A DNA stretch of 64,000 bases from a bacterium (lineage in GTDB: Bacteria > Armatimonadota > Zipacnadia > Zipacnadales > UBA11051), in NCBI GenBank assembly GCA_030604405.1, contig JAUVVY010000002.1, positions 1-64,000 of the forward strand, read 5' to 3'. Position 1 is the stretch's first letter. Every line of letters begins with the position of its first letter. Under the pieces are notes generated by a model. It was not told where the DNA came from. It saw only the letters and a list, made by a program, of their open reading frames with translations, and did no database searches. Shown here one piece after another: positions 6,952 through 54,583 of the stretch. Made by a program: the position numbers and the translations under genes.

Positions 6952-7130
6952 CGCCGAGGCGTGGCAAGATTATCGGTAGGCTGATGCCGATTACACTGGC
7001 TTCATGCCTATCCCCCTAGCCCCCTTCCCTAGTAGGGAAGGGGGAATCAAAGGGGGTTAGGTGGCACCACGAGCACCACTACCGCTGACTTACCGATGAT
7101 TCTTGCACGCGCCGCAAGTAGCGCCGAGGC
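6943..7130. mobile_element. MITE-like insertion flanked by 18-bp direct repeats
   Basis: CGCAAGTAGCGCCGAGGC occurs at 6943-6960 and again at 7113-7130. The intervening 152 bases begin with GTGGCAAGATTATCGGTA and end with an imperfect inverted copy (reverse complement GCAAGAATCATCGGTA). They contain a perfect palindrome at 7020-7044 with arms CCCCCTTCCCT and AGGGAAGGGGG. There is no transposase. An 18-bp duplication is long for a target site, so a REP/MITE-like element or a local duplication are both possible. Confidence 0.45.
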
Positions 7131-7414: not shown

Positions 7415-8467
7415 TTACTGGCGCTCAGCCAGGACCTGCAGTAGCCGGAGGTCGAGAAGCTCCTCAGCGGCCTTCGCAACGTCTTCGGGCAGCGCCTCTC
7501 CAGAAATGACGGATCGAACGATTCCCTCGGCGAGAGCGATCAGCCGCGTGACACTGTCGTCATTCACCATGTTTTTGGCCGATGTCAGGCCGCGCAGGCA
7601 GTCTTCGACCCAGCGGCCGTCACAAGCACCAATGGCGGCTAGCAGCAAAGCCTCCTTGGCTTCCTGCCGGCGGTCAAATTCGTCGCCATCGAACATAACC
7701 TCGACCGCCGCCACGGTGAGTTCCGCAACCGTAGCAGCAGCCAGGTCCACGTAAGGAGCGTTTTGGACATGCTCCTGCGGCACCGTTTCCCACAGTCCCT
7801 CTACCACTCCCGGCTTGTCCACCAGATAGAGCACGGCGCATACTCGGGCAATCGTGGCCAGTGACGGCATCTCGAGCTGGGAGACGGGCATCTTTTCGGG
7901 AAGTTGCGACTGGGCCAACTGCTCGTCGGTGGCAGAAAGCCTCACTAAGCCGACGAAGACGTCATCTTCGGTGGGAATGTAGCCGACTGAGACGGACCAG
8001 TGGCCGCGAGCTTTGTCGAGTTCATCGAGCTGTAAGTATGCTGCGGCCAGCTCGCGGTGGACTATTTTGGCATCGGGCAACAGGCAGACGGCGTACCACA
8101 AGCCTGCTTGCGCCTGCTGATACTCGCCGCGGCGGAGCGCCCGGATTGATTCCTGAAGGATGCCGGGCCGCTGGGCCAACTCCGACAGCGGGCCAATGAA
8201 GTTGCGGCGCTCAATGCCCAGGAGGTCCGCCACGTCACGGGCAAGCGCTATCTGGCCTTGTTCTTCCCTACTCAACTCCCGTCCCAGCACCATGAGTCCC
8301 ATGGCGGACAGCCGGCCTCGGGCAGCCTCAAGCAGGCCAATTTCCGGGCTCGCCGGGGTCAATCCCGGTTCCAAAGGAAGTGGGATAAGAGGCGGAGGCT
8401 GGGCAACCGCCACCACGACGGACAGGATGAAAGCGGCTGTCAGCAACGGCAGAGCTGTCTTTATCAT
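7415..8467 (-). CDS. Secreted protein with degenerate tetratricopeptide-like region
   Basis: 350 residues. A signal peptide (MIKTALPLLTAAFILSVVVAVAQ) is followed by a proline-rich stretch. Around residues 110-165 there is a TPR-like helical hairpin (ALRRGEYQQAQAGLWYAVCLLPDAKIVHRELAAAYLQLDELDKARGHW). The remainder is predicted helical without a known signature. AGGAGG lies upstream of the ATG. It is probably a periplasmic scaffold or tally-type protein. The gene is a single unit with no co-oriented neighbour. Confidence 0.7.
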   Translation of the reverse strand: MIKTALPLLTAAFILSVVVAVAQPPPLIPLPLEPGLTPASPEIGLLEAARGRLSAMGLMVLGRELSREEQGQIALARDVADLLGIERRNFIGPLSELAQRPGILQESIRALRRGEYQQAQAGLWYAVCLLPDAKIVHRELAAAYLQLDELDKARGHWSVSVGYIPTEDDVFVGLVRLSATDEQLAQSQLPEKMPVSQLEMPSLATIARVCAVLYLVDKPGVVEGLWETVPQEHVQNAPYVDLAAATVAELTVAAVEVMFDGDEFDRRQEAKEALLLAAIGACDGRWVEDCLRGLTSAKNMVNDDSVTRLIALAEGIVRSVISGEALPEDVAKAAEELLDLRLLQVLAERQ

Positions 8468-16794: not shown

Positions 16795-17532
16795 CTACTG
16801 TTGGCCTGGCGGCTCGAAGCGGAGTTGGAGGAACGCGTCCTTCTTCAGGTATTCGGCATGTCCGTCGGCGTAGCTGAGGTTGAGGCCGCCAAAGTGGCGG
16901 TAAGCAGCCACCTCCGGGCCTCCGGCCACCTCTGCACCTTCGAACAGGAGGGGTATCGTCGCTGTTGGAGCGCGATCGCCCAGACTGTCCGTTCCCGCTC
17001 CACTCAGGAAAATGTTCATGCAGTAGCTGGTCTCCCTCCCGTGGGTGCCCTTGGGGTCGCTGTAGAAGTCCGACGGACAGCAGAGGATGCTGAAGTTCTT
17101 GGCGTAGGGCTGCGTCGCGCTCGCCCAATCGTGCGCCGGCGGAAAACGCTCGTCATAGTCGGAAAAGTACATCAACTGGGCGTTGGTCAGTTGGCGAACA
17201 TTAGACAAGCAGCAGCTTTGGTGGGCCTGCGCTTTTGGACCCGCCAGATAGCAGATGATTGCCAGGGCCAGGACTGCGGCCGCCATTCCCACAAGCGCGC
17301 GAGCTTTGCGACCGGGTCTGAGCAGTGCAACGATGCCCAGGACCAACGCGATAGCAGGCAGCAGGGCGCGGACGAAAGGAGCCAGGACGGCGTAGGCGAC
17401 GCGGTCATGCAACCCCCATACCAGCCACTGCCACAGCAAGGTGTCAATGAAGGGCGCCAGCAGCAAGGCGGCGAGGCCAAGGACAAGGGCAGCGATCGCC
17501 CAGCCGGAAGACGAATGCGCTTGCTTGCTCAT
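16795..17532 (-). CDS. H-x9-DG (DUF1559-related) membrane protein 1
   Basis: About 245 residues from ATG 17532, which has an AGGG-type site upstream; a longer start at 17577 is less likely. Three or more hydrophobic segments lie in residues 10-110. The exported part then begins HQSCCLSNVRQLTNAQLMYFSDYDERFPPAHDW and ends RHFGGLNLSYADGHAEYL, the characteristic H-x9-DG C-terminal signature. Cys-rich spots (SCCLSN, LCCPSD) could form disulfides. Family members are numerous in Planctomycetes and Armatimonadota and are thought to be pseudopilin-like. This one lacks the usual pilin leader and has extra N-terminal helices. Confidence 0.75.
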   Translation of the reverse strand: MSKQAHSSSGWAIAALVLGLAALLLAPFIDTLLWQWLVWGLHDRVAYAVLAPFVRALLPAIALVLGIVALLRPGRKARALVGMAAAVLALAIICYLAGPKAQAHQSCCLSNVRQLTNAQLMYFSDYDERFPPAHDWASATQPYAKNFSILCCPSDFYSDPKGTHGRETSYCMNIFLSGAGTDSLGDRAPTATIPLLFEGAEVAGGPEVAAYRHFGGLNLSYADGHAEYLKKDAFLQLRFEPPGQQ

Positions 17533-17621
17533 GTGCTCACCCTGCGGCCTTCTGTCTTTGGTATTATTGCCCAACACGGCGCCTCCAAGAGACGTTCTCT
17601 TCTCTCTCGTTCCGAAGCCTG

Positions 17622-18215
17622 CTACGTGGGCGGCGGCTCGAAACAGAGCTGGAGGAACTCGGGATTGTTCAGGTACTTGGCATGGCCGTCGGCGTAGCTC
17701 AGGTTCAGCGCGTTGCGGTGCCGGTAAGCAGCGACCTCCGGACCGCCGGCGACCTGCGTGCCATCGAATTCGAGCGGCGTTCTGTCAGGATAGCCGAGCG
17801 TGCCCTGGTCCAGTCCGCTCAGGAAGACGTTCATGGAGTAGCTTACCTCGCCCGAGTAGATGATCTCACCGCCATGATTCATCACGGCGTAGGCTTGGTC
17901 TCTTGCAGGACAGGTGAGGATCTGGCAGTTCTTGAGGTAAGGGCCGTACAGCGCCTTCGGCCAGTGGTCAACGGGCGGGAAACGCCCATCATAGTCCTGG
18001 GCATACATGAGCTGTGCGTGGGCCATACTCTTTAAGTTGGATAAACAACAGGACTGTCGGGATTCGGCCGTCATATTCTGGGCCCGGATAATCAGCAGCG
18101 TCATCCCTGCCGCGAGGCCAAGGACCAGAGCGGCGATCGCCCAGCCGGAGGTGCGACGCGCTTGGTTCTGCGCATCCTGGGTCTCGTCATTGGTGTGCTT
18201 GTCAATATCGCCCAT
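17622..18215 (-). CDS. H-x9-DG (DUF1559-related) membrane protein 2
   Basis: About 197 residues from ATG 18215. There is one membrane segment (SGWAIAALVLGLAAGMTLLIIRAQ). The extracytoplasmic domain is closely similar to the neighbour at 16795-17532: SCCLSNLKSMAHAQLMYAQDYDGRFPPVDHW, then SYSMNVFLSG, then GPEVAAYRHRNALNLSYADGHAKYL. The pair evidently arose by duplication. AGGA lies about 9 bases before this ATG, while the upstream in-frame ATG at 18254 would overlap the previous gene. It is co-oriented with three other envelope genes in a probable operon starting at 20410. Confidence 0.75.
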   Translation of the reverse strand: MGDIDKHTNDETQDAQNQARRTSGWAIAALVLGLAAGMTLLIIRAQNMTAESRQSCCLSNLKSMAHAQLMYAQDYDGRFPPVDHWPKALYGPYLKNCQILTCPARDQAYAVMNHGGEIIYSGEVSYSMNVFLSGLDQGTLGYPDRTPLEFDGTQVAGGPEVAAYRHRNALNLSYADGHAKYLNNPEFLQLCFEPPPT

Positions 18216-18256
18216 AGCGACACGTCCTGGAGGCTGTCGTACATGCCACGGCATTC

Positions 18257-19351
18257 CTAGTAGTCAAGGTACTTGTAGATCACGGTGCCGCTTTCGTCAA
18301 ATCCGAGGTAGATTGATTGAACGGAGCGCTGCCAGTGCCATACCTCAGCGGCGTCCACCGGATACTCGGCCATCTCTTCGGCCGTGGCGTCTGGCGGTGG
18401 TGGAGGTTTGGCGTGTGAGGCGTAGTTCGAGTGGCGTGGCGGGTTGAGGTCCCGGCGACCGGGAGGGCCGAGGATCGTGAGCACCTGCTGCTTCGACATG
18501 CCGCGTTGAATCAAGTCGTAGTCTCGCTCGGTGAAGCCCAGTTTCCTGCTCGGCGCAAGATAGCGGGGCAAGAGCGCTTGTTGCCATTTGGCCGAGCCGT
18601 CAGCAAACCCCATGTTCCAGCCGCCACTGTGCCAGGGCTTGCGATCGCTCAGCCACCACGTGCCCGGCGGCACGTCATCCAGCTTCCTTCCGGCTACGGC
18701 GGCGTTCCAGGTGTAACTGACGCCTGGCTCAGGCAAGCGGTTGAGATTCGGTCGCCCTGCTCGGTCATGGTTCACTGGGTCTGAGGGGCAGAAGAATATG
18801 CAAGAGTCCTTCGTGTACGGGTGAATAGCGCCGCCGCCCATCCAGGCCGCGTGCGCATGACGGGGCCAGTCCTTCCGGGGTGTGTTCCGTAATTCCTCTA
18901 GCACATCGTGGTGCACGCCGACTAGCTGGGTAGCGGTGGTGCATACGGGTAAGACCTCATCATAGTCCAGGGCATACATTGCGATGCCGGTGCCAATCTG
19001 CTTGAGGTTGCTGAGGCAGTTGTTGGCGCGCGCGCGTTCGCGATGAGGCCTGAAAAGGGGTGACCAGCCCGGCCAAGCAAAGTATGCCAGCAACGCGATA
19101 GCGGCGACCAGGACGAATGCCCCGGCGGCGGCCGCGACCTTCTTCTGGTACCACCATCGCACGCCGGCGATAAGTGCGCCAACCGCCAGCCCGAGTACCA
19201 GGCCTCCCAAGAGCACATACGGCGCTGCCCCGGGCAGAGCGCCTCTGGCGAGCAAGAACACTGCGAAGATGCTTGCCGCAGCGCCTGCGATGCCACACAA
19301 TAGCCATTTACCAAGCGACTTGGCGATGCCCATTGGCGCTTTCCTGTGCAT
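18257..19351 (-). CDS. H-x9-DG membrane protein 3 with BamE/SmpA-like tail
   Basis: 364 residues. Three hydrophobic segments (about 12-110) precede an exported domain starting NNCLSNLKQIGTGIAMYALDYDEVLPV, with WHSGGWNMGFADGSAKW as the H-x9-DG signature. Beyond it lies YDLIQRGMSKQQVLTILGPPGRRD, which resembles the I-x-x-GMS-x-x-x-V-x-x-x-LG-x-P motif of the BamE/SmpA/OmlA fold. The protein ends SIYLGFDESGTVIYKYLDY, like such a domain. The ATG at 19351 follows the previous gene's TAG directly. A second ATG at 19333 has AGGAAA before it and is also possible. Confidence 0.7.
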   Translation of the reverse strand: MHRKAPMGIAKSLGKWLLCGIAGAAASIFAVFLLARGALPGAAPYVLLGGLVLGLAVGALIAGVRWWYQKKVAAAAGAFVLVAAIALLAYFAWPGWSPLFRPHRERARANNCLSNLKQIGTGIAMYALDYDEVLPVCTTATQLVGVHHDVLEELRNTPRKDWPRHAHAAWMGGGAIHPYTKDSCIFFCPSDPVNHDRAGRPNLNRLPEPGVSYTWNAAVAGRKLDDVPPGTWWLSDRKPWHSGGWNMGFADGSAKWQQALLPRYLAPSRKLGFTERDYDLIQRGMSKQQVLTILGPPGRRDLNPPRHSNYASHAKPPPPPDATAEEMAEYPVDAAEVWHWQRSVQSIYLGFDESGTVIYKYLDY

Positions 19352-20439: not shown

Positions 20440-21090
20440 TTATGGCTTTTTGAACCGGACAGTGTAGCTGAAGAAGCTTCCCAGTGCATCGTCGAGATCG
20501 AAGCCTGCTTCGCGGCCCAGGCGGATAGTCGTTGAGCGCAGAGGATAATCCGGATCGGGCAGCAGCTCGCTCACCGCCACAATTCCGCCCGGCTTCAATA
20601 TCCGCCTGATCTCCCGCAAGGCGCGGCTCGGGTCCGGGACTTCTTGCAGCACTGCCACCACGATCACCAGGTCGAGCGAATCGTCATGAAAAGGCAGCTC
20701 ATAAGCACTGGCGCGTACAGGCTGGATGTTGTGTATGTCGCGGTGCTCAGCCCGGGCCAGCTTGCGCTGCAACTGGCGCAGCATGTTAAGTTGAATGTCA
20801 AGCGCAAAGACGCAGCCCGCCTCGCCAACGGCTCTGGCCAGGAAGGTTGTCAATGCTCCGCTGCCGCAGCCGAGGTCCAAAACGGACATGTCTGCCTGGA
20901 CGCCGCTGTCCCGGAGCACCTTGTCGGGCGGCTGCATCATGCGCCGGAAGCGGCTGTTGAGGAAGCGGCCAATGAACGCCGGCGCAGGAAAAGCAGCATG
21001 AAAGACCTTCTTAGCCAGCCTGGCCAGCACCTGGAAGGTCAGAAGAAGTGCCAGAATTGCTAATGCAATCTTCACGATCATAGAAACCAT
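20440..21090 (-). CDS. Membrane-anchored class I SAM-dependent methyltransferase
   Basis: 216 residues. An N-terminal membrane segment (IVKIALAILALLLTFQVLARLAKKVF) is followed by a Rossmann-like methyltransferase domain. Motif I is VLDLGCGSGALTTFL, the acidic residue after strand 2 is in FALDIQ, motif II is LDLVIVVAVLQEVPDPSRAL, and motif III is RILKPGGIVAVSELLPDP. This is closest to the UbiE/methyltransferase-11 type. A lipid or quinone substrate would fit the membrane anchor, but this is inference. It ends 30 bases before the multi-pass membrane gene, so it may lead the operon. The tRNA-Leu island begins upstream. Confidence 0.85.
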   Translation of the reverse strand: MVSMIVKIALAILALLLTFQVLARLAKKVFHAAFPAPAFIGRFLNSRFRRMMQPPDKVLRDSGVQADMSVLDLGCGSGALTTFLARAVGEAGCVFALDIQLNMLRQLQRKLARAEHRDIHNIQPVRASAYELPFHDDSLDLVIVVAVLQEVPDPSRALREIRRILKPGGIVAVSELLPDPDYPLRSTTIRLGREAGFDLDDALGSFFSYTVRFKKP

Positions 21091-21274
21091 CCGCGTGAAC
21101 TAATGTCCACTTGAGATAGTTCGCATTGTATTGTCGGCGTTGCATACGGCATGGATCAAAGGCATTCCAGCCAATTTCCCGTACCGACAATTCCTACACG
21201 CGTCCCAGCAGATGTGGACTCTACCATGTGTTTGTGATAATCTTGGCGGTGGTAAGGTTATTTTACCACAATGT

Positions 21275-21361
21275 GCCGGAGTGGCGGAACTGGCAGACGC
21301 ATGGGACTTAAAATCCCAAGGGCTTCGGCCCGTCCCGGTTCGAGTCCGGGCTCCGGCACCA
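21275..21361 (+). tRNA. tRNA-Leu (anticodon TAA)
   Basis: 87 bases with an encoded CCA end. The acceptor GCCGGAG pairs with CTCCGGC. The D stem is GCG/CGC. The anticodon stem is TGGGA/TCCCA with loop CTTAAAA, giving anticodon TAA at 21309-21311. The long variable arm (GGGC-TTCG-GCCC) marks a class II Leu tRNA. The T stem CCCGG/CCGGG is perfect. Its 3' end (from 21315) is repeated at 23597-23643 and serves as the integration site of the island downstream. Confidence 0.97.
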
Positions 21362-21391
21362 ACCCATTCGAGAAGGTGAGGGAACAGAGTC

Positions 21392-22120
21392 ATGATGGCG
21401 ACCAATATTGCAGTAGCAGTCTGTACCGCAGTCTTGGCTATCGCTACTGCTTTCATGGCATGGAAAACCTGGCAAGCGGCACAGAAAACCGCTGAAATGG
21501 CAGAAGCCACCAAGGAAATGGCCGATGCTACGCAAGGTGCCGCTACACTCGCGAGTGAGCAGCTTCAGTTCATGATGGAGGAAGCAGATCACGCAGCTAC
21601 CGCGAGCGTGGGCGTGGATATCACTTGGGACTCCGCAGCCTCTGAAAAGGTCATGGTAGGGCTTCACCTGTCGAATGCAGGGCCGGGCACCGCACGCGAT
21701 CTGAAGTTCCATGCTTGGCTGGCTACCGACGAACACCATTCGAACTTGGCGTATTCCTCATGGACCTGCCCGATGCTCGCGCGCGATGAGAGACTCGATG
21801 GAGCGTTGACGTTTGAAGGGCAGAATTTTCGTGATGTTTCCCGAGGCAGAGCACACCTTGAGCTATTGGTGACGTGGCGCGACGAAAAACGGCGGCCTTG
21901 GGCGTGGATAGTGCGCGCCAAGTACTTCGTGAGTTTGGGGAAAGACAATGCTTGGTTCACATATTATCCCAAGGAGTATTGTGGAGAGCAACTGAGTGCT
22001 GATGACCCTCTGGTCGATCCGCGATCCGACCAAAGCAAGCGGCACGACATAGTGAAACGGAGGTTGTCGGATTTCGGTCAAGCACTGGCAAGTGTTCGCG
22101 ACGAGCACTCAACTAGGTAG
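21392..22120 (+). CDS. Single-pass membrane protein of the TIR module (unknown family)
   Basis: 242 residues (ATG 21392 or 21395). The N-terminal membrane helix (IAVAVCTAVLAIATAFMAW) continues into a predicted amphipathic helix or coiled coil (KTWQAAQKTAEMAEATKEMADATQGAATLASEQL). A beta-rich globular domain of about 140 residues follows (MVGLHLSNAGPGTARDLKFHAWL, RAHLELLVTWRDEKRRPWAW), resembling the beta-sandwich found in many prokaryotic membrane proteins with a short N-terminal anchor. GAGGGAA precedes the start. No catalytic motif is seen. As first gene after attL in a TIR operon, it might act as sensor or scaffold; this is inference. Confidence 0.7.
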   Translation: MMATNIAVAVCTAVLAIATAFMAWKTWQAAQKTAEMAEATKEMADATQGAATLASEQLQFMMEEADHAATASVGVDITWDSAASEKVMVGLHLSNAGPGTARDLKFHAWLATDEHHSNLAYSSWTCPMLARDERLDGALTFEGQNFRDVSRGRAHLELLVTWRDEKRRPWAWIVRAKYFVSLGKDNAWFTYYPKEYCGEQLSADDPLVDPRSDQSKRHDIVKRRLSDFGQALASVRDEHSTR

Positions 22121-22352
22121 GCCTTGTGGATCAGGGCTTGGTCACTGTGGCATTTCACACCCACAGATCACCCCTATGACACCAGCAAACTTCGACGCGC
22201 TCTGCGTACCAGCCCGCAGAGCGCTGCGTAGCCCTCCGGCACGATTGCACCCCTTGTACCGACCGGGGCTGCACGTGGGGAGGTCCAGATGCACTATCCG
22301 ACGAATGCTGCAAGCACTTGACGCACGAATCTCCGCACCGCGGAAAAGGGCG

Positions 22353-22910
22353 ATGTTTGACTTCTGGGTGGCCATCCTAATCACGCTTGTCGTCGCCTTG
22401 GTCACAGTCCTGGCCGACTGGGCCACGTGGACGTTGCTTGTATATGGTCGCACGCTGCGGCGTCTGGTCGCGCTAGTGTCTGCAGGACCTCCGGCGAGAG
22501 AGCTACGCGTAAGCCTCGAGCGGGAACTGCAACGTTTTCGCGAGTACCGTTCGGCTTCCCAGACATGGGGTTTCGAGCTTGCCTCAGTCGCATTGTCGAT
22601 GGATGTCGTTGCGCTCTGCATATGGGTTCACGAGCCCACGATGTTTCCCTTCTTTGCACGCTTTGACTCGCCCGGCACGTCCAGAGGGTTGCTCGTCTGG
22701 ATTGTGGTGTTGGGGCTGCACACATTGCTCTTCCTTTCATCGTTGGCGATGAAGAACCAGCATTGCATCTCTGTAGCCGGAAACGGAGTAGAGGCCCCCC
22801 AGTTCCCCGCACGAGAGTGGTGGTCGGCGAACGTGTGGATGTTGCTCGGCAACGTGCTGGGGGTTTTGGCCTTGCTGGCAGCGATCGTCGTCTTCGCAAA
22901 TGCGCTATGA
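22353..22910 (+). CDS. Four-helix membrane protein of the TIR module (unknown family)
   Basis: About 185 residues from ATG 22353, preceded by a GGAAAAGGG stretch. A longer reading from 22092 overlaps the previous gene and gives an implausible Arg/Pro-rich leader. Four hydrophobic segments are seen: FWVAILITLVVALVTVLADWATWTLLVY, a weaker one near SVALSMDVVALCIWV, GLLVWIVVLGLHTLLFLSSLAM and VWMLLGNVLGVLALLAAIVVFANAL. Between the first two lies a helical cytoplasmic loop rich in Arg/Glu. It ends 10 bases before the TIR gene, which suggests translational coupling. A membrane-disrupting effector or a partner of the TIR protein would both fit. Confidence 0.65.
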   Translation: MFDFWVAILITLVVALVTVLADWATWTLLVYGRTLRRLVALVSAGPPARELRVSLERELQRFREYRSASQTWGFELASVALSMDVVALCIWVHEPTMFPFFARFDSPGTSRGLLVWIVVLGLHTLLFLSSLAMKNQHCISVAGNGVEAPQFPAREWWSANVWMLLGNVLGVLALLAAIVVFANAL

Positions 22911-22920
22911 GTGATTGACA

Positions 22921-23499
22921 ATGGACCTGGCATCCCTAATTAGCGTCGCCGTGAGCGCCACGGCAGCAGGTTTGGCACTCAGCCTGCTGCGCAACCTCCT
23001 GGCGGCGATGACATCCAGGAAGACCATTATGGTCGATGACCGGACTGTTCACATTGACCTGTCTGATCCTGAGAGGGTCAGTGCACTCCTGGCTCTACTC
23101 GACGGCCCGCCACGGGCGATGATGATATATGCACATGAGGACACGAAGTTTGTCCGGTCTCTGGTCAGCGATCTGCAGCAGCACGATGTGGCCGTGTGGT
23201 TCGATGAGGACGAGATCAATGTGGGCGATAGCCTAACAGAGGCAATCAGGTCTGGGTTGGCATCTAGCGGGTATGCCATCGTGGTGCTCTCGAGGGCGGC
23301 ACTCTCGTCCAAGTGGGTGAACTCCGAACTCGACCAAGCCCTTCACCGGCAGCAGAACGGTTACCCACCGCTCGTACTCCCCGCCCTGATAGAAGACCTC
23401 GACCTACCCACCCGCCTCGCCCACATACAGTACGCAGACTTCCGGGGCGACTATGACCACGGCCTGGAACAACTGCTTGCCGCAATGAGACAGACATGA
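22921..23499 (+). CDS. Membrane-anchored TIR-domain protein
   Basis: 192 residues. A short N-terminal membrane helix (LASLISVAVSATAAGLALSLLRNLLAAM) and a linker precede a TIR domain (about 65-190). The TIR signature runs AMMIYAHEDTKFVRSLVSDLQQHDVAVWFDEDEINVGDSLTEAIRSGLASSGYAIVVLS, then SSKWVNSELDQAL. The Glu in the W-x-x-x-EL motif is where bacterial TIR NAD-hydrolases keep the catalytic Glu. In known bacterial TIR systems these domains cleave NAD or make cyclic-ADP-ribose signals upon phage infection, so a defence role is likely. A TTG at 22915 is an alternative start. It is the last gene before the attachment repeat and a terminator. Confidence 0.85.
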   Translation: MDLASLISVAVSATAAGLALSLLRNLLAAMTSRKTIMVDDRTVHIDLSDPERVSALLALLDGPPRAMMIYAHEDTKFVRSLVSDLQQHDVAVWFDEDEINVGDSLTEAIRSGLASSGYAIVVLSRAALSSKWVNSELDQALHRQQNGYPPLVLPALIEDLDLPTRLAHIQYADFRGDYDHGLEQLLAAMRQT

Positions 23500-23596
23500 A
23501 GTCTCAGGAGCGGCTGCCGGAGCCCGGCGGGCGCGAAGAGTGTCAATCGAGCCGGAGTTTTCTCCCCCTCCCCTGACCGGGCTCCCGGTCTCTGTC

Positions 23597-23643
23597 CCCA
23601 AGTGCTTCGGCCCGTCCCGGTTCGAGTCCGGGCTCCGGCACCA
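23597..23643 (+). repeat. Attachment-site copy (tRNA-Leu 3' end)
   Basis: It matches 21315-21361 at 46 of 47 positions by eye, covering the variable arm, T arm, acceptor and CCA but not the 5' half of the tRNA. It therefore marks the right end of the TIR module. Confidence 0.85.
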
Positions 23644-23650
23644 TAAACGC

Positions 23651-23677
23651 AAGAGCCCCCGTATGACAGGGGCTCTT
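23651..23677 (+). terminator. Rho-independent-type terminator after the attachment repeat
   Basis: AAGAGCCCC pairs perfectly with GGGGCTCTT around a 9-base loop and is followed by TCT. It lies 8 bases beyond the attachment repeat. It may originally have terminated the tRNA-Leu transcript before the island entered. Confidence 0.8.
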
Positions 23678-23775
23678 TCTGAGTTCAGACTTGCCCCGAA
23701 GAGACGTTGCAGTTATGCCTCCGGGTGATACAAATCCAGAATGGTTTTGTGAGCAATGCGGATTCTTCGGTCAGG

Positions 23776-24519
23776 TCAATTGAGTGTCACCCAGTTTTCT
23801 ATGGTCCCAGGTGTGCCGAAGGTCTCTCCGGTACAGTTGAGCGGATCAGCATCACGTTCTGCCTGGGAGATGATCATCTGCTCTCGCGAAGTAACGCCGG
23901 CTGCTTGATATTCCTGAAATACCGCATCGGTCATCACTTCAAAGTAGGAGATGAGTTGCCAGGGGCAGGAAGGGTGGTTAGCGATTTCCACCTCGATAGC
24001 AATGTCTGAACACCCCAGATAGGCGTGTGTTCCCAGTTGCTGACCGGAGGTAACGTGGTCTCCTGGACTCACCCCGTCTGAGAGTGCGACGTGGAAAATA
24101 ATACAGGTGAAATCCGGGTAACCTGTCGGCCTGATGCGGATTTGACTGCCGCTGTCGCTCAACCCTTCCTGGTCGATCCTGGTGATGTCCCCTTCTACAG
24201 GTGAAAAGATCTCAATAGACAACGCCATGCCCTCCCTGGCCTGAAAGTAATGCTTCATACTTCGGCAGCTCTCGAAGCAGTCGGAGTAGTCATGCCCGAT
24301 ACCGGAGCGCAGCCTTGAGATTCGACTGATCTTCTCGAGTTCAATGTAGTTAGAATCTGCGAACCTGGGTATTCCCTGGCTCAGGTCCCAACCATCTCCG
24401 TCTTCTCCGTTTTCTCCGTTTTGTTCGTCTCCGCCCCCTCCGCTTCCGCAACCTGCGACTAACATCAGGGTAATGAGAAATGAGACTAAGCAGGCACTAT
24501 TGAGCAGGGATCTACGCAT
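23776..24519 (-). CDS. Lipoprotein with M23-peptidase-like fold
   Basis: 247 residues. The lipoprotein signal ends LMLVAGC (lipobox Cys24), followed by a Gly/Asp/Asn-rich tether. The body contains GIGHDYSDCFESCRSMKHYF, FSPVEGDITRI, HVALSDGVSPGDHVTSGQQLGTHAYLGCSDIAIEVEI. This follows the order of an M23 (LytM) domain, including the 'V-x-x-GD-x-V-x-x-GQ-x-LG' stretch. The usual final H-x-H is replaced by IEVEI, so the metalloprotease site may be incomplete. It is the only gene of module 2 and faces away from the tRNA-like copy upstream of it. Its first about 60 bases are duplicated in module 3. Confidence 0.7.
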   Translation of the reverse strand: MRRSLLNSACLVSFLITLMLVAGCGSGGGGDEQNGENGEDGDGWDLSQGIPRFADSNYIELEKISRISRLRSGIGHDYSDCFESCRSMKHYFQAREGMALSIEIFSPVEGDITRIDQEGLSDSGSQIRIRPTGYPDFTCIIFHVALSDGVSPGDHVTSGQQLGTHAYLGCSDIAIEVEIANHPSCPWQLISYFEVMTDAVFQEYQAAGVTSREQMIISQAERDADPLNCTGETFGTPGTIENWVTLN

Positions 24520-24540
24520 TGGGCTGCCTTTCTTGCTCCC

Positions 24541-24699
24541 GGCGAGAGATGCAACTAGTTGTATCTCAAGTCTATCATATCAGGAACGTTTGTCAACACA
24601 GAATAGGGCACTGCTGGAGTGGCGGAATTGGCACAGGCATGGGACCTAGAATCCCAAGGGCTTCGGCCCGTCGCGGTTCGAGTCCGGGCTCCGGCACCA
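24541..24699 (+). repeat. Long direct repeat, copy 1 (lipoprotein leader plus tRNA-like gene)
   Basis: Positions 24541-24699 align without gaps to 26462-26620 (constant offset 1921), with about five differences by eye. Similarity continues, more weakly and with gaps, into the first codons of the lipoprotein gene (to about 24400, versus about 26350). Confidence 0.9.
24613..24699 (+). tRNA. tRNA-Leu(TAG)-like gene, probably degenerate
   Basis: 87 bases, the same layout as the tRNA-Leu at 21275, with CCA. The acceptor GCTGGAG/CTCCGGC pairs with one G-U. The anticodon loop CCTAGAA gives TAG. However the D stem has a G-G mismatch (GCG/GGC) and the T stem has another (CGCGG/CCGGG). Function is doubtful; it may be a decaying tRNA carried by the element and used as an attachment site. 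Confidence 0.6.
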
Positions 24700-24713
24700 G
24701 ATGAGTAATCAAG

Positions 24714-24753
24714 AATGCCCGCAGCGGCCCCTCAGGGCCCGCTGCGGGCATAT
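24714..24753 (+). terminator. Long hairpin after the tRNA-like gene
   Basis: ATGCCCGCAGCGG pairs with CCGCTGCGGGCAT, a 13-bp stem around a CCCCTCAGGG-type loop that can itself pair. It lies 16 bases beyond the tRNA-like CCA. A terminator is likely; an attachment-site-associated recombination element is the alternative. Confidence 0.65.
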
Positions 24754-24879
24754 TGCTTCCCGGTGACGGGACGCCGATAAGACGCCACGGGGACGCCAGC
24801 AGACCGAATATGGGCGTGAACCGCAGGGGATTTTTCGTGAAGTCTCCGGTGGTTCACGACCTCTGAATCGGAGCCTGCT

Positions 24880-25809
24880 ATGCTCAACCTGAACACTCCG
24901 TCGGACGGCAGCATCACTATCAGTGAACTCGTGGCTGAGTACATCGACGACTGTCGCATCAGGAATCTCAGCCCCCAAACGATACTGTGGTATCGAACAC
25001 GCCTATCCCTATTCTTCGCCGATGTATGGGAAGATGAGTTGGCCTCAGTCACGGTGCGGCAGATGAGGGGGACGCTCCTGTCGATGCCGGAGTCACGGGA
25101 GGCGTCAACCGTCAACGGATACCTCAGGGCTGCGAAGGCGATGATGAATTACGCCATCGACAATGACTACGCAGTTGGGATCAACCCACGCCGTCTGAAG
25201 AAGATGAAGGAGCCAAGGAAGGTTCCGCCCTGCTTCTCGGTTGAGCAGGTGCAGGCGATGCTGAGACAACCCGATCTGTCAACCTTCATCGGCCTCAGGG
25301 ACCTAACGATGATGAGCGTTCTGTTGGACTGCGGTTTGCGGCTTAGCGAGTTGACTGGCCTGCTCGTGGCAGATGTGTGCATTCCCTATGCGACAGTGCG
25401 TGGGAAGGGCTCAAAGCAGAGGATCGTGGCGATGTCAGATGAGATGACCAAGCGGCTACGGAAATACCTGCGGGCGAGACAGCGGGTGGTAGCGAAGTCA
25501 AGAAGCGATGTGTCATTCCTGTTCCCGTCCCGCTACGGCAGGAGACTGAACAGCCGCACGGTGGATGGCATCTTGAAGAGATATGGTGGGATGGGAGGGG
25601 TCGAGGGGGTGCGGGTCTCCGCCCACACTTGGAGGTTCACATACACCACGCTGGCCCTTCGGGCCGGGATGTCCCTTACCTCCCTCCAGACTTGTCTCGG
25701 GCACGCCACGCTTGCGGTTACGAGGCATTATGCGGTTGTGAATGACACCGATGCGTTCAGCGATGCAAGGGCTTGCTCTCCGTTAGCGAATCTGCCGAAG
25801 CGTCGATAG
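24880..25809 (+). CDS. Tyrosine recombinase / integrase (XerC/D-like)
   Basis: 309 residues. The N-terminal SAM-like core-binding domain (about 10-95) reads ISELVAEYIDDCRIRNLSPQTILWYRTRL. The catalytic domain holds the full set: Arg in LLDCGLRLSELTGL, Lys in VRGKGSKQRIV, H-x-x-R in SAHTWRFT, His in LGHATLAVT and Tyr in RHYAVV. It therefore should be active in strand exchange. The gene follows the second tRNA-Leu-like copy and is the only integrase in the island, so it probably targets the tRNA-Leu 3' end. GGAGC lies 5 bases upstream of ATG. A hairpin at 25851-25870 separates it from the convergent RusA-like gene. Confidence 0.92.
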   Translation: MLNLNTPSDGSITISELVAEYIDDCRIRNLSPQTILWYRTRLSLFFADVWEDELASVTVRQMRGTLLSMPESREASTVNGYLRAAKAMMNYAIDNDYAVGINPRRLKKMKEPRKVPPCFSVEQVQAMLRQPDLSTFIGLRDLTMMSVLLDCGLRLSELTGLLVADVCIPYATVRGKGSKQRIVAMSDEMTKRLRKYLRARQRVVAKSRSDVSFLFPSRYGRRLNSRTVDGILKRYGGMGGVEGVRVSAHTWRFTYTTLALRAGMSLTSLQTCLGHATLAVTRHYAVVNDTDAFSDARACSPLANLPKRR

Positions 25810-25850
25810 GTGATGGTCGACGGGGGACGACGGCGAAGCCGCATTCGCAC

Positions 25851-25870
25851 AGCCCTCATCAACGAGGGCT
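25851..25870. terminator. Hairpin between convergent genes
   Basis: AGCCCTC and GAGGGCT form a 7-bp stem with a 6-base loop between the integrase stop and the RusA-like stop. It could serve both strands. No T-tract is present. Confidence 0.4.
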
Positions 25871-26303
25871 ACAGTCCGTCGTCGCCTTCGAGACCGACGG
25901 TGTAGAAGGGCCTCGGATCGCCGACGACCTTGCTGGCACAGATGAATACAACTTGGTGGTCGTCGTCGATAGCGATGGGCCTGCTGGGATGGGCCCCGGC
26001 GTTCTCCAAGGCACTCCACTCGTCGCCGAGCGTCGCCTTGGTATCGGCGGCCATCAGGCCGTCGCAGATGCCAGCTACAAACGTGTCGAGATCACCAGTC
26101 TGCCGAGTGTTGCTCGGCCCGGTGTGAACGACGATGCAGAGGCGAATATCTCGTTGCAGCACGGGACTGTCACCGAGTTCAGCGAGTGCAGCCCTCCGCA
26201 GACTGATGAGGCCTGGTATCTCGCGGGCGTTGCCCCACATCGAGATGGCCCCGCTTTTCTTGGGCGGCAGCCCATCGACCCTGAATGCGTAACATCGTGT
26301 CAC
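25869..26303 (-). CDS. RusA-like Holliday junction resolvase family protein
   Basis: About 144 residues from GTG 26303, which has GGGAGGT 5 bases upstream; an ATG at 26306 is only 2 bases from it. The order VDGLPPKK, then TRQTGDLDTFVAGICDGLMAA, then IAIDDDHQVVFICASKVVGDPRPFYTVGLEG matches the RusA pattern. That pattern is two Asp in a DLD motif, a further Asp one helix later, then a D-D-x-x-V strand followed by K. RusA enzymes cut Holliday junctions and are common in prophages. This fits a mobile element. The start overlaps the stop of a truncated lipoprotein leader. Confidence 0.65.
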   Translation of the reverse strand: MTRCYAFRVDGLPPKKSGAISMWGNAREIPGLISLRRAALAELGDSPVLQRDIRLCIVVHTGPSNTRQTGDLDTFVAGICDGLMAADTKATLGDEWSALENAGAHPSRPIAIDDDHQVVFICASKVVGDPRPFYTVGLEGDDGL

Positions 26304-26440
26304 CATCTACCTCCCTCAGGCATCGGCGTCCTCCCGCCTCCGTCTGCTCCGTTTTGTCCTCCGTCTCCGCAACCTGCGATTAGCATTAGGGTAACGACAA
26401 ATGAGACTAAGCAGGCACTATTCGGCAAGGATCTACGCAT
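26301..26440 (-). pseudogene. Truncated copy of the lipoprotein gene's 5' end
   Basis: The frame starts MRRSLPNSACLVSF and runs through the lipobox LMLIAGC, nearly the same as the intact lipoprotein at 23776-24519. After a short Gly/Asp tether it diverges and stops after 46 codons (TGA at 26303-26301). That stop overlaps the GTG start of the RusA-like gene. It could still make a 23-residue lipopeptide, but it looks like a remnant left by duplication and replacement. Confidence 0.8.
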
Positions 26441-26461
26441 CGGCCTCCCCTTCTTCCTCTC

Positions 26462-26620
26462 GGCGAGAGATGCAACTAGTTGTATCTCAAGTCTATCATA
26501 TCAGGAACGTTTGTCAACACAGAATATGGCACTGCTGGAGTGGCGGAATTGGCACAGACATGGGACCTAGAATCCCAAGGGCTTCGGCCCGTCGCGGTTC
26601 GCGTCAGGGGTCCGGCACCA
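26462..26620 (+). repeat. Long direct repeat, copy 2
   Basis: Counterpart of 24541-24699, ending exactly at the last CCA of the degenerate tRNA-like sequence. The next base begins the stop codon of the adjacent membrane-protein gene, so this is the island's right border. Confidence 0.9.
26534..26620 (+). pseudogene. tRNA-Leu(TAG)-like pseudogene
   Basis: Third tRNA-Leu-type copy, 87 bases, TAG anticodon. It has two D-stem mismatches (GCG/GAC), T-stem mismatches (CGCGG/CAGGG), a changed T loop (TTCGCGT) and a G-G clash in the acceptor. It cannot fold as a normal tRNA. The damage increases from copy 1 to copy 3. Confidence 0.85.
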
Positions 26621-28861
26621 TTAGACGTTTTGTCCCCGGCGGCGCCTGCGAGCGTTTAGCCAGAACACCAGAGCCATGGCCATCAACACCGCGGTGGCAA
26701 TGCTCAGCCCCAGGCCGATGTCATAATCCCACGGCTCGAAGCTCAGCCTGACCTGGTGCGTGCCTGGCGGGACGGGCATCTGCATGAAGAAGCCGCCCGG
26801 GTGGGCAAGCTGTAGCGGAATCGGCTGTGCGTCAACCGTAGCAAGCCACCCCGGGTAGTGGCTCTGCATGATGAATAGTGTCGCCTGCCGTGGGGCGGTG
26901 AAATCGAGCAAGAATTCTCCCGGGCCCGGACTGCGACATTCGACCGGTTGCAGCTCGTATGGCCCGCCGACCGGCGCAGGCCTGAGGAAGTTCCCTGGGC
27001 TCAGTAGCGTCTGATTGCAGAGAAAGAACGAGCCGACACAGTCGGGATTCTCGTAGAGATAAGGCCGCGAGGGGTCGGGCTGTATCCACGGCGGGCCAAG
27101 ATCGTGCGGGGACATAGTAATCCACTTGATGCCCAGGCGGGTGCAGAAGTCGGCCAGTCGGTATGGATCGGATACCGTGCGGCGAAGTTGGACGTCAGTG
27201 TGCAGGGCCGCTGCGGGTAGAACGGCGTCGCCGACCAGAGCACTGGGAATGCCATAGACCGAGCAGGCATTCTCGGCCAAACGGTCGCGCCAGTCAATCA
27301 CCCGGGTCTTTGACGTGCTCACGGGAGGCCAGGTTGGTGTTGTGCCCTCCAGGCAGGCGACCTTTTCACCGGAGTGAACGGTACGGCTGAGACAGAGCCG
27401 GGCGGCTTGTGGCGGATCGGTCCAGAACTCCATCGGCACAGTGCGGTTGAGCATGAGCCAGAGAAGGCTCAACTGGGCCACAGTGCAGAAAATGACAACC
27501 CAGGCGAGCCGAACGCCGGAGAGCCTGGCGCCAGCGATGGTGATAGTCACAAGCAGCAGCGCAATGCATGCCAGCGAGGCCTCAAGCCATGTTGTTGGAG
27601 GCGAGCCAAGAGTGCATGTGGCGACGCAAAGGAGGAGCGCCACCGCCGCTATTGTTGCGCCTGTTCTGACGCGGCTGGATGGCGTTGCGGGGTTTCTGAT
27701 GAGGAATTGCATGTAGTCGGCGGCAAGCAGCGCCAGGCCGAGAGAGACCAATAGCACATTGCGCGCCGGCACGCGGAAGATGGAGAATGGCGGAATATGC
27801 GCTAGAAGATGGTAAAGCGGCGTGTTGCCCCCCAGCATCAGCAGCGTGCCGATGACAACCAGCGCCACAGCATAGCGCATGCGCAGGTTCCATTTGCGCG
27901 GCGTGAGTAGACTCAATATAGCCAGGAGAATTGCCGCAATGCCGACATAGCCGAGGCTCTCCCAATATGCGGTGCCCATCTGGGTCTTGAGCCCGGCTGC
28001 GGGGAGGATGAAGCGGGGGAAGTCGGCCCACTGGAAGCTGCCGGAGGTGATGAAGTCATAATGTCCTGCAGGCTCGGGGCGGGGAAAGAGCTTCGAAGAG
28101 TAGTACAGCGGCACGACTTGCGCCGCACCCAGAAGCACTCCACCGCCCAGCACCAGAATCGCCCTGCCCACCAGGCTCCCAATCGGAGCAAGCTGCGATT
28201 TTTCGCTCCGCCACGCCACGAGTGCGTAAATGACTATCATCAGAACGGCGAGCCAGACGTATTGCGGGTGTCCGCCAAGAAAGCTGAGAGCCAGGGCGGC
28301 TGCGCCTGCCAACGCCCAGGGCCACGGCCTGTCCTTGCGAAGCCACTGTGTAGCCAGCCATAGCGTTATGAAAATGTGGCTGAGGCCCATGACGACATTG
28401 ATGTGAATCTGGTGGGCGGCCATGACCCCGCCGCCGCCCACGCAAAGTGCCAGCAGCAAAGCAGGCAAGACGCCCAGGCCGAGGGCGAGGGCAAGCAAGT
28501 AGGCGGCGAGACAGGCTGTGAAGGCGTGCAGGATCAAGGACGCCCGGTACGCTGTTGACCAGTGTAGGATGCGGTAGAGGATCAGGTTCGGCGGATAGAG
28601 CATCGCCGACGGGCCGGAGCCGTGCTGGTAATAGCCACTGCCCAGGTCTTTGTTCCACAAAGCTATGCGTCCCTGCTGCAGCCGCGTGCCATAGTGACGC
28701 ATCTGTGGTATAGTATGGCGGCCGACATCGTCTTGATACGGCATGCGGCCGAGCAGGAACTGGAAATTGACACCGATGCAGTAGAGCAGCAGAAAGCCTA
28801 CTGCAAATATGTGAGGACGCAAGCCAGCTTTTGGTGGGTCTGCAGGAATCGGCATAGACAC
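26621..28861 (-). CDS. YfhO-family multi-pass membrane protein
   Basis: 746 residues with about 12 membrane spans and a large extracytoplasmic C-terminal beta domain closed by a last helix (IGLGLSIATAVLMAMALVFWL). Typical YfhO/GT-C features are MPYQDDVGRHTIPQM...WNKDLGSGYYQHGSGPSAMLYPPNLIL after the first helix and the FIMQSHYPGWLATVDAQPIPL...PPGTHQVRLSFEP domain near the end. Family members are thought to transfer sugars from lipid-linked donors to wall polymers or proteins. GTG 28861 and ATG 28855 are both possible starts. The stop codon abuts the island border. It is divergent from the HD gene across 68 bases. Confidence 0.8.
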   Translation of the reverse strand: MSMPIPADPPKAGLRPHIFAVGFLLLYCIGVNFQFLLGRMPYQDDVGRHTIPQMRHYGTRLQQGRIALWNKDLGSGYYQHGSGPSAMLYPPNLILYRILHWSTAYRASLILHAFTACLAAYLLALALGLGVLPALLLALCVGGGGVMAAHQIHINVVMGLSHIFITLWLATQWLRKDRPWPWALAGAAALALSFLGGHPQYVWLAVLMIVIYALVAWRSEKSQLAPIGSLVGRAILVLGGGVLLGAAQVVPLYYSSKLFPRPEPAGHYDFITSGSFQWADFPRFILPAAGLKTQMGTAYWESLGYVGIAAILLAILSLLTPRKWNLRMRYAVALVVIGTLLMLGGNTPLYHLLAHIPPFSIFRVPARNVLLVSLGLALLAADYMQFLIRNPATPSSRVRTGATIAAVALLLCVATCTLGSPPTTWLEASLACIALLLVTITIAGARLSGVRLAWVVIFCTVAQLSLLWLMLNRTVPMEFWTDPPQAARLCLSRTVHSGEKVACLEGTTPTWPPVSTSKTRVIDWRDRLAENACSVYGIPSALVGDAVLPAAALHTDVQLRRTVSDPYRLADFCTRLGIKWITMSPHDLGPPWIQPDPSRPYLYENPDCVGSFFLCNQTLLSPGNFLRPAPVGGPYELQPVECRSPGPGEFLLDFTAPRQATLFIMQSHYPGWLATVDAQPIPLQLAHPGGFFMQMPVPPGTHQVRLSFEPWDYDIGLGLSIATAVLMAMALVFWLNARRRRRGQNV

Positions 28862-28929
28862 TCTCGAAATTCAACAGGGATGGACGATAGACCTGCTGAG
28901 GGCGACCCACACTTACCGGAGGTGATAGT

Positions 28930-29481
28930 GTGACACGCGATGACGCAATGCAACTGCTTACGGAATTTACGAAGAACCCGAACCTGGTGAAGCATGCGCT
29001 GGCTGTAGAAGCCGCCATGCGGGCCTATGCGCGGCGGTTTGGTAAGGACGAGGAGACATGGGGACTGGTCGGGCTGCTGCACGACTTTGACTACGAGATG
29101 TATCCGGATCCCGCCGACCATCCATTCAAAGGCGCTGAGATTCTTCGCGAGCGAGGCTGGCCGGAAGAGATCGTGGAAGCTGTGGTGGCACATGCTGACT
29201 ACGGCGGCATTGAACGCGACACCGATCTCAAGAAAAGCATCTACGCTGTTGACGAGTTGACGGGCCTTATCGTTGCCACAGCACTGGTACGTCCGGACAA
29301 GAAACTCCAAAGCGTGAAAGTCAGCTCGGTCAAGAAGAAGTTCAAGAGTAAGGGCTTCGCCGCCTCCGTTGACAGAGACCTTATCAGCCGAGGTGCAGAG
29401 GAGCTGGGCGACAGCCTCGACGAACTGATAGAGGTCGTCCTCGAGGCGATGCAGGGAATCGCTGAGGAGCTGGAGCTGTAG
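28930..29481 (+). CDS. HD (HDIG) domain phosphohydrolase-like protein
   Basis: 183 residues. Metal-ligand motifs follow the HD order: His in LVKHALAVEAAM, HD in GLLHDFDYEMYPD, His in HPFKGAEIL and His/Asp in VVAHADYGG. The C-terminal third is Lys-rich then acidic. Such small HDIG proteins hydrolyse phosphorylated nucleotides or act as regulators; the substrate is unknown. The start is GTG 28930, with GGAGGTGA 5 bases upstream. The next gene begins 3 bases after the stop, so the two are co-translated. Confidence 0.85.
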   Translation: MTRDDAMQLLTEFTKNPNLVKHALAVEAAMRAYARRFGKDEETWGLVGLLHDFDYEMYPDPADHPFKGAEILRERGWPEEIVEAVVAHADYGGIERDTDLKKSIYAVDELTGLIVATALVRPDKKLQSVKVSSVKKKFKSKGFAASVDRDLISRGAEELGDSLDELIEVVLEAMQGIAEELEL

Positions 29482-50176: not shown

Positions 50177-50564
50177 GGCAGTGCCTCCTCCTGGTAATGG
50201 TGCCTCAATTGACCTATCTTTCCCTATCGCTATTAGTATTATACCCAATTTCCTTCATAGATATTCCAGTTCCGCGACCGATTTCCCTGCAATCGTCATC
50301 CAGCGGGATTGCCCTGGCAACGCCTCGAAATCATTAGAGGCAATGTCCTGGAGTCAACCGGGTGCTTCGCTGGGCACCCCGCTGATGCGGCACCAGGTGA
50401 TGCCTTGAGAAGCGTCTGCTGCACGTACAGCATCTTGGTCGTGGGGCGGCATCAACAATTTGAAGGTAAAATAATCGCGGGGCGGAAGGTTACTGGCACA
50501 AATTGTTGGAAATAGCAGTCAGCATAAATGCTTGGGGACAATTCCCCCAATAGGAGTGAAGGAG
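50177..50564. other. Divergent intergenic region (388 bases)
   Basis: It separates the minus-strand secreted protein from the aminotransferase array. A minus-strand -10 TATAAT is present at 50243-50238, 62 bases from the ATG at 50176, without a clear -35. For the plus strand only weak elements are visible (TTGTTG at 50503-50508 with TAAATG at 50525-50530). No open frame or RNA structure is convincing. Confidence 0.5.
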
Positions 50565-51884: not shown

Positions 51885-51903
51885 CGCGGCGGGCGATGCA
51901 GAA

Positions 51904-53208: not shown

Positions 53209-53246
53209 CGCACAGAGTTGAGAGTGTCATCTGAGGAGCGATACTA

Positions 53247-54545: not shown

Positions 54546-54583
54546 CGCAGAGAGTTGAGAGTGTCACCAGAGGAGCGATACTG

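What the first reader, a model, noticed from the sequence alone, without database searches (positions are those of the whole stretch)
21315..23643. Three-gene membrane/TIR module bounded by tRNA-Leu attachment repeats
A membrane-anchored TIR protein with the conserved W-x-x-x-EL Glu is co-directional with a four-helix membrane protein (10-base gap) and a single-pass protein with a beta-rich domain. The trio is neatly bracketed by 47-bp direct repeats (46/47 match), so it is a discrete cargo. TIR proteins in bacteria usually work in anti-phage defence with an NAD- or nucleotide-dependent partner, but this set has neither a ThsA-like nor a cyclase gene. The two membrane partners could be the sensor and pore, making a new abortive-infection-type architecture.
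Basis: partly seen in the sequence, partly recalled or inferred. Interest (0 to 1): 0.75.

Follow-up and report, generated by a model that had tools for sequence, protein, structure and literature searches.

The report
TIR gene cassette in tRNA-Leu array
A small, probably mobile DNA block carrying a membrane-anchored TIR enzyme, perhaps an anti-virus suicide gene, is the first of three blocks inserted in a row at a leucine tRNA gene; the insertion is of a known kind, but the enzyme's build is unusual and its two partner genes have no relatives that we could find.

Summary
The repeats are real but belong to a larger object. One 47-bp core from the tRNA-Leu 3' half occurs four times (47, 46, 46, 43 of 47), dividing 5.26 kb into three segments: the trio, a lipoprotein gene, and a tyrosine integrase. 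One same-genus relative shows the uninserted site: there the neighbour gene's stop codon directly follows the tRNA CCA, as after the last copy here. The two nearest integrase relatives (59%) also lie just behind tRNA-Leu(UAA). The trio segment thus resembles a cis-mobilizable element (attachment sites, no integrase) beside an integrase-bearing one, a known arrangement.

Gene 3 is a TIR protein with the catalytic W-x-x-x-E and one N-terminal helix; 0 of 81 related TIR frames (78 informative) showed such a helix. Genes 1 and 2 read as coding but gave no homologue in the collections searched, so co-occurrence could not be tested. Most likely: a tethered TIR NADase acting in abortive defence, with gene 2 its likeliest partner.

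The parts
21275..21361 (+). tRNA-Leu(UAA), integration target; its 3' half is the left att core of the array
   Evidence: ARAGORN, Rfam 58 bits
21315..21361 (+). att core copy 1 (47 bp)
21392..22120 (+). gene 1 (P0001 is this frame from its second ATG, 21395): one N-terminal helix, coiled coil, beta-rich domain; no homologue found
22197..22224 (+). 10-bp perfect hairpin with 8-base loop in the gap between genes 1 and 2
   Evidence: fold of 22121-22352, z -3.07
22353..22910 (+). gene 2 (P0005): four-helix membrane protein; no homologue found
22921..23499 (+). gene 3 (P0002): N-terminal membrane helix, short linker, TIR domain with W132/E136
   Evidence: Pfam TIR_2 2.8e-27, PDB relatives, alignment
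23597..23643 (+). att core copy 2 (46/47), right end of segment A
23776..24519 (-). segment B: lipoprotein-like gene (M23 match below cut-off; 'lipoprotein' is read from its first residues)
24437..24699 (+). 263-bp repeat, copy 1 (start of the lipoprotein gene, its upstream region, tRNA-Leu copy)
24613..24699 (+). degenerate tRNA-Leu copy (anticodon TAG); 24653-24699 is att core copy 3 (46/47)
   Evidence: Rfam 34.2 bits, two mismatched pairs
24880..25809 (+). segment C: tyrosine recombinase (P0003), 180 bases behind the tRNA-Leu copy
   Evidence: Pfam Phage_integrase 1.7e-27
26358..26620 (+). 263-bp repeat, copy 2 (92%), with a truncated lipoprotein start and a degenerate tRNA-Leu copy at 26533-26620
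26574..26620 (+). att core copy 4 (43/47), right end of the array
26621..28861 (-). right chromosomal flank: large membrane protein whose stop codon directly follows the last CCA
20440..21090 (-). left chromosomal flank: methyltransferase
   Evidence: same neighbour of tRNA-Leu in G262

Best explanation
A 5.26-kb tandem array of three att-delimited segments lies inserted at the 3' end of tRNA-Leu(UAA). Segment C carries a tyrosine integrase; segment A, with the trio, has att cores on both sides but no integrase, so it looks like a cis-mobilizable element that the neighbouring integrase could move (inferred). Its cargo is most likely a toxic defence gene: a TIR NADase held at the inner face of the membrane by an N-terminal helix, switched on when phage infection makes it cluster, then destroying NAD+ (inferred from the TIR family). 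Gene 2, 10 bases upstream, is the likeliest partner, as anchor, inhibitor or sensor (inferred). Gene 1 starts 30 bases behind the tRNA in the same direction, so the segment may be read through from the tRNA promoter (inferred). Shown: the array, an uninserted site in one relative, the TIR domain with its catalytic Glu, coding-like frames. Not shown: excision, NADase activity, defence, partnership.
For: Four copies of one 47-bp core in one orientation; a search of the own genome with the tRNA at E<=1 gave besides these only tRNA-Leu(CAA) and two matches of 16 and 23 bases. Uninserted site in same-genus G263: tRNA-Leu(UAA) followed at once by the stop codon of the homologue (63% identity) of the right-flank gene, as after the last copy in the window. 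Left flank with an identical tRNA in G262. Integrase relatives at 59% in G251 and G254 start 170 and 172 bases behind tRNA-Leu(UAA), near other genes. TIR. Codon model. CIME definition in PMC5704250 (passages); tandem islands at one tmRNA gene, some without an integration module, in PMC3146451 (passages). A TIR NADase on an integrative element that defends: SpbK on ICEBs1, PMC12847820 (passages).
Against: No homologue of genes 1 or 2, so no co-occurrence. PADLOC scans of 10 neighbouring window genes gave no defence system; the one match, of the methyltransferase to the mad2 model, covers 58-197 of the protein and may be no more than a shared methyltransferase domain. No excised form was seen for this array. 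The TIR's first motif is divergent (I-Y-A-H-E-D where most have S-H-x-S-x-D). The 263-bp repeat in segments B and C is more than simple site-specific insertion would leave. Synteny is not uniform: in G262 a histidine kinase gene lies behind the tRNA, and the right-flank homologue (78%) sits on another contig with no tRNA in the 326 bases held behind it; in G260 its homologue (49%) has no tRNA within the locus. The promoter scan found no plus-strand site for the tRNA either, so it says little about gene 1.
Confidence: 0.5

Rival explanations
1. The three genes form one new membrane defence system: gene 1's beta domain senses infection, the TIR makes a signal or burns NAD+, gene 2 is the pore or effector.
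For: Co-directional order within one att-bounded segment; all three have hydrophobic helices; no known partner gene in the segment; a transmembrane effector paired with TIR proteins is known from TM-macro Thoeris (PMC11204291, passages).
Against: No recurrence in the collections searched; a 232-base structured gap between genes 1 and 2; no ligand-binding domain recognised in gene 2. Topology is uncertain: no K or R before the first helix of any of the three, but after it gene 1 has 3 K/R against 7 D/E in 40 residues.
Confidence: 0.2
2. A decaying island: the segment holds unrelated orphan genes, the TIR is a leftover and nothing works together.
For: Segments B and C carry degraded copies (truncated lipoprotein start, degenerate tRNA copies); no homologues of genes 1 and 2.
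Against: All three frames are open and score best in their own frame, and the TIR keeps its catalytic residues; segment A's two cores are the closest pair.
Confidence: 0.22
3. The repeats are tRNA genes multiplied by segmental duplication and not attachment sites.
For: Copies at 24612 and 26533 span the full tRNA and share 263 bp.
Against: The copy at 23597 is only the 3' half, as integration at tRNA genes leaves (principle: Islander, PMC4383910, passages); an integrase lies inside the array; its two nearest relatives sit at the same tRNA; the uninserted site in G263 is precise.
Confidence: 0.06

Closest known systems
Cis-mobilizable elements (CIMEs) in tandem with integrative elements (PMC5704250)
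   Same: att sites on both sides, no integrase or recognised transfer gene, directly beside an integrase-bearing element at a shared tRNA target
   Different: Very small (2.3 kb); no conjugation gene recognised in the array's five scanned proteins; excision untested
Dehalococcoides ssrA genomic islands (PMC3146451)
   Same: Tandem islands bounded by repeats of one tDNA 3' end, some without an integration module
   Different: tRNA-Leu target, tyrosine instead of serine integrase, TIR cargo instead of reductive dehalogenases
SpbK (TIR NADase on ICEBs1, PMC12847820)
   Same: TIR gene carried by an integrative element
   Different: SpbK has a phage-portal-binding N-terminal domain; here a membrane helix and a short linker
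Thoeris (ThsB TIR plus ThsA, including TM-macro ThsA, PMC11204291)
   Same: TIR protein near a membrane protein
   Different: No SIR2, SLOG or macro domain recognised; the TIR itself has a membrane helix
Dictyostelium TirC (PMC13142454, preprint)
   Same: C-terminal TIR NADase behind a single N-terminal hydrophobic helix
   Different: Eukaryotic; related to TIR-STING; no bacterial partner genes at its locus

Membership tests
Cis-mobilizable element | att sites at both ends of the segment | tested here: met
   cores 21315-21361 and 23597-23643, 46/47
Cis-mobilizable element | no integrase or transfer gene of its own | tested here: met
   the three proteins match no integrase or transfer family above cut-off in Pfam or NCBIfam, nor an integrase in PHROGs; gene 1's IcmS match is below cut-off. 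Short frames of the segment were not scanned.
Cis-mobilizable element | neighbouring element with an integrase for the same site | tested here: met
   integrase 24880-25809; its two relatives at 59% sit at tRNA-Leu(UAA)
Cis-mobilizable element | mobilised in cis (excision or transfer shown) | not testable with these tools
   needs PCR or reads across junctions
TIR NADase | TIR family match | tested here: met
   TIR_2 2.8e-27; PDB AbTIR 4.6e-15
TIR NADase | catalytic Glu in W-x-x-x-E | tested here: met
   W132, E136 invariant in 10 sequences
TIR NADase | NAD+ hydrolysis | not testable with these tools
   needs an assay
Thoeris | ThsA effector (SIR2-SLOG or TM-macro) beside the TIR gene | tested here: not met
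   genes 1 and 2 match no such domain
Thoeris | ThsB-type TIR | tested here: inconclusive
   PF08937 ThsB_TIR 24.9 bits, above its cut-off of 21.2, but TIR_2 is far better at 96.1 bits; PADLOC ThsB 4e-15 is second to PDC-S66; NCBIfam ThcB4 21.3 bits against a cut-off of 220
CBASS / TIR-STING | cyclase gene, STING or SAVED domain | tested here: not met
   no such domain in the three proteins; PADLOC's SAVED_TIR model matches only in its TIR part, profile 20-97 of 404

The most novel reading that the evidence does not exclude
The tRNA-Leu gene works as a promoter and dock for small defence cassettes that carry att cores but no integrase. A neighbouring integrase loads them in trans, and the newest lands directly behind the tRNA promoter and is read through, much as in an integron. 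The newest cassette here is a new three-part membrane TIR system: a beta-domain sensor, a four-helix channel and a tethered NADase.
Probability: 0.12. Interest if true: 0.72.

Novelty: new variant of a known kind. Interest (0 to 1): 0.4.

Why it matters
If the TIR works, it would show a bacterial TIR held by its own membrane helix and carried on a cassette without an integrase, linking tandem tRNA islands that share an integrase to the spread of defence genes. If genes 1 and 2 are required, they are two membrane protein families that the PADLOC, Pfam, PHROGs and NCBIfam models searched do not describe.

Tried and rejected
Gene 2's only hit outside the own genome (G001, E=0.0099, one stop inside) and the hit of the TIR's N-terminal 66 residues in G129 (E=0.005, in a frame that looks like a nucleoside phosphorylase, a name recalled) were set aside as chance. 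AlphaFold models of genes 1 and 2 were poor (mean pLDDT 53.8 and 59.7); the Foldseek hits for gene 1 (mostly arrestins; 4 with E<=0.001) come from a poor model and were not used. A start of gene 2 further upstream was rejected: 22092-22352 does not score as coding. Matches below cut-off were not used: TIGR02588 (gene 1), IcmS (gene 1) and TPIP1 (gene 2), both. Searches that gave nothing of use: the TIR and the integrase in viral contigs; the whole array against plasmids, one tRNA-sized match; the integrase against plasmid records, 2792 records, all below 60% identity; the TIR against phage records, 6 records, all below 60%, and plasmid records, 163, all below 60%. Literature: 'membrane-anchored TIR' with 'bacterial' and 'phage' returned 0 papers; 'TIR domain' with 'four transmembrane', 'anti-phage' and 'defense' returned 2 reviews (listing only).

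Single-protein scans find only close relatives. The phylum was named by no tool; Armatimonadota is a guess from recall. Only 10 of the window's flanking genes were scanned with PADLOC.

Full report
What is there. The window is bases 1-64000 of contig C63 (190,841 bases) of a 4.37-Mb genome in 96 contigs. A tRNA-Leu(UAA) gene lies at 21275-21361. Its last 47 bases, from the 3' strand of the anticodon stem to CCA, occur four times in the window, all in one orientation: 21315 (47/47), 23597 (46/47), 24653 (46/47) and 26574 (43/47). No match of 28 or more lies on the minus strand, and the best match in five mononucleotide shuffles was 28. A search of the own genome with the tRNA at E<=1 gave, besides these four, only tRNA-Leu(CAA) on another contig and two matches of 16 and 23 bases.

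Segment contents. A holds the three reported genes. B holds a lipoprotein-like gene on the minus strand (23776-24519; M23 match below cut-off). C holds a tyrosine recombinase (24880-25809, Phage_integrase 1.7e-27). B and C end in 263-bp repeats, 92% alike, with the start of the lipoprotein gene, its upstream region and a full-length but degenerate tRNA-Leu copy. The copy at 24613 scores 34.2 bits in Rfam against 58 for the true tRNA; the copy at 26533 was not called a tRNA. So B and C share a duplication, and the array's history is not simple integration alone.

Relatives. In G263 (same genus) tRNA-Leu(UAA) is followed immediately after CCA by the stop codon of the homologue (63% identity) of the gene at 26621-28861; in the window that gene's stop codon follows immediately after the CCA of the last copy. 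In G262 the left flank is alike: 88.8% identity over 732 bases around the methyltransferase, and an identical tRNA, 88 of 88 bases. But there a histidine kinase gene lies behind the tRNA, and the homologue of the right-flank gene (78%) is on another contig with no tRNA found in the locus, which holds 326 bases behind the gene. In G261 the frame next behind the tRNA is an HD-domain gene matching window 28908-29481 at 67.6%. In G260 the tRNA lies near a contig end, with an unrelated frame behind it and a second tRNA-like match (68.6%) 1.2 kb further on; its right-flank homologue (49%) has no tRNA within the locus. None of the array's five proteins P0001-P0005 matches the contigs of these tRNAs (tblastn, E<=1e-3, L034, L182, L183, L184). 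Thus one relative of four shows the exact uninserted junction, one more shows the left side, and none has the array.

The integrase and its site. Of 291 genomes of the phylum, 6 (own included) had an integrase match at E<=1e-45. Two are close: 59% in G251 and 59% in G254, whose match to residue 1 begins 170 and 172 bases behind a tRNA-Leu(UAA); the window's lies 180 bases behind its tRNA-Leu copy. As a control, ARAGORN was run on 32 integrase-match loci with their flanks (L043-L072, L188, L189; some flanks are cut by contig ends). Besides these three, two had a tRNA-Leu: L048 (UAA, about 0.8 kb away, in a tRNA cluster) and L054 (CAA, about 140 bases from a partial match). The other 27 had no tRNA-Leu (one has tRNA-Met, one tRNA-SeC). 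Neighbouring genes differ: in G254 a frame with a weak AAA_16 match and one with a weak NYN match, both below cut-off; in G251 a second integrase and frames without a match; none matched PADLOC. No P0001, P0002, P0004 or P0005 match lies there.

The TIR protein. P0002 (192 aa) has one N-terminal hydrophobic helix (residues 5-23), a linker, and a TIR domain from about residue 70 (TIR_2 2.8e-27). Solved relatives include a 'Molecular chaperone Tir' (2.2e-15), AbTIR (4.6e-15) and Cat1 (2.3e-9). W132 and E136 are invariant in 10 aligned sequences, as are W93, D95, G102, D103, S104 and L123; the first motif is divergent. The best PADLOC match is PDC-S66 (1.4e-23), then ThsB (4e-15); NCBIfam gives nothing above a curated cut-off. 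Of 291 phylum genomes, 9 (own included) had a TIR match at E<=1e-10, none of the other 8 in the same order. A genome-contig scan gave 114 relatives, of which the best 80 loci were kept. In these, 81 TIR frames were examined and 0 showed a hydrophobic helix before the domain. The first methionine was taken as the start; in three rows (L081, L086, L090) this fell inside or behind the domain, so 78 of 81 are informative. Charges around the helix are compatible with a cytosolic TIR (no K/R before it, 5 K/R and 6 D/E in the 40 residues after it), but do not prove it.

Genes 1 and 2. Gene 1 has one N-terminal helix and a model with a long helix and nine strands, at low confidence. Gene 2 has four hydrophobic helices and a low-confidence all-helical model. 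Both score best in their own frame: 0.12 and 0.13 per codon, against at best -0.13 and 0.06 in other frames and 0.38 on average for the training genes. Searches found no relative: phylum genomes, plasmids, viral contigs, genome contigs for gene 2 only, and 9138 frames of at least 60 residues from the loci then held, 12 window-derived loci left out (phmmer E<=10). Co-occurrence could therefore not be tested.

Layout and expression. Gene 1's first ATG is 30 bases behind the tRNA, in the same direction. The sigma-70 scan of 21100-26700 gave four sites, all on the minus strand, against 2.2 expected in shuffles, and one terminator-like site, behind the tRNA copy at 24737, against 3.6 expected. It found none upstream of the tRNA either, so absence of a site for gene 1 means little; read-through from the tRNA promoter is an inference from spacing alone. 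The 232-base gap before gene 2 folds strongly (z -3.07, 0 of 200 shuffles as good), with a perfect 10-bp hairpin at 22197-22224; it may separate gene 1 from the pair gene 2-TIR.

How it most likely works. Island: site-specific insertion at the tRNA 3' end by the segment C integrase or a relative, with segment A as an integrase-less passenger. That is the pattern of a cis-mobilizable element in tandem (PMC5704250, passages), with the ssrA islands of Dehalococcoides as the nearest described parallel that I found (PMC3146451, passages). Cargo: a tethered TIR NADase kept inactive until clustered. Clustering as the trigger is reported for SpbK (PMC12847820, passages). In TirC of amoebae, removing the N-terminal helix made the protein toxic in amoeba cells (PMC13142454, preprint, passages). 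Whether gene 2 restrains, senses or forms a pore cannot be told from sequence.

Novelty. The island is a new member of a known kind; the TIR's build and its two orphan neighbours make it a variant. Literature searches (open-licence PMC only; listings, and passages of six papers) showed me no paper on this array or trio.

Noticed in passing
L073:13657-13891 and L185:1-127 (G254, end of contig C3 and start of C1): The same 127 bases (71 plus the tRNA-Leu 3' half) are followed on C1 by other genes, but on C3 by the element's own left end, in inverted orientation (164-nt arms, 99%). This could be an attP-like junction, a second inverted copy, or an assembly error.
   Followed up: partly
L074:6806-6828 / 8052-8074 and 6945-6967 / 8027-8049 (G251): Here too a piece of the tRNA-Leu and a piece of the element's left end recur as perfect 23-nt inverted copies just behind the integrase, on either side of two unresolved bases. 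Both close integrase relatives thus show an inverted tRNA-plus-left-end piece.
   Followed up: partly
window 24437-24519 and 26358-26440: The start of the lipoprotein gene is duplicated with its upstream region; both copies keep the same promoter-like site on the minus strand.
   Followed up: no
window 50532-55888: Four similar co-directional frames in a row; the first is a DegT/DnrJ/EryC1 aminotransferase (4.3e-78), the other three were not scanned.
   Followed up: partly
window 16795-19351: Three neighbouring minus-strand frames share C-L-S-N and a Y-x-x-D-Y-D stretch. The third (18257-19351) matches DUF1559 (2.4e-8); the first matched nothing at E<=0.001; the second was not scanned.
   Followed up: partly
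window 22121-22352: Gap with strong predicted structure (z -3.07); no Rfam family at E<=0.1.
   Followed up: partly
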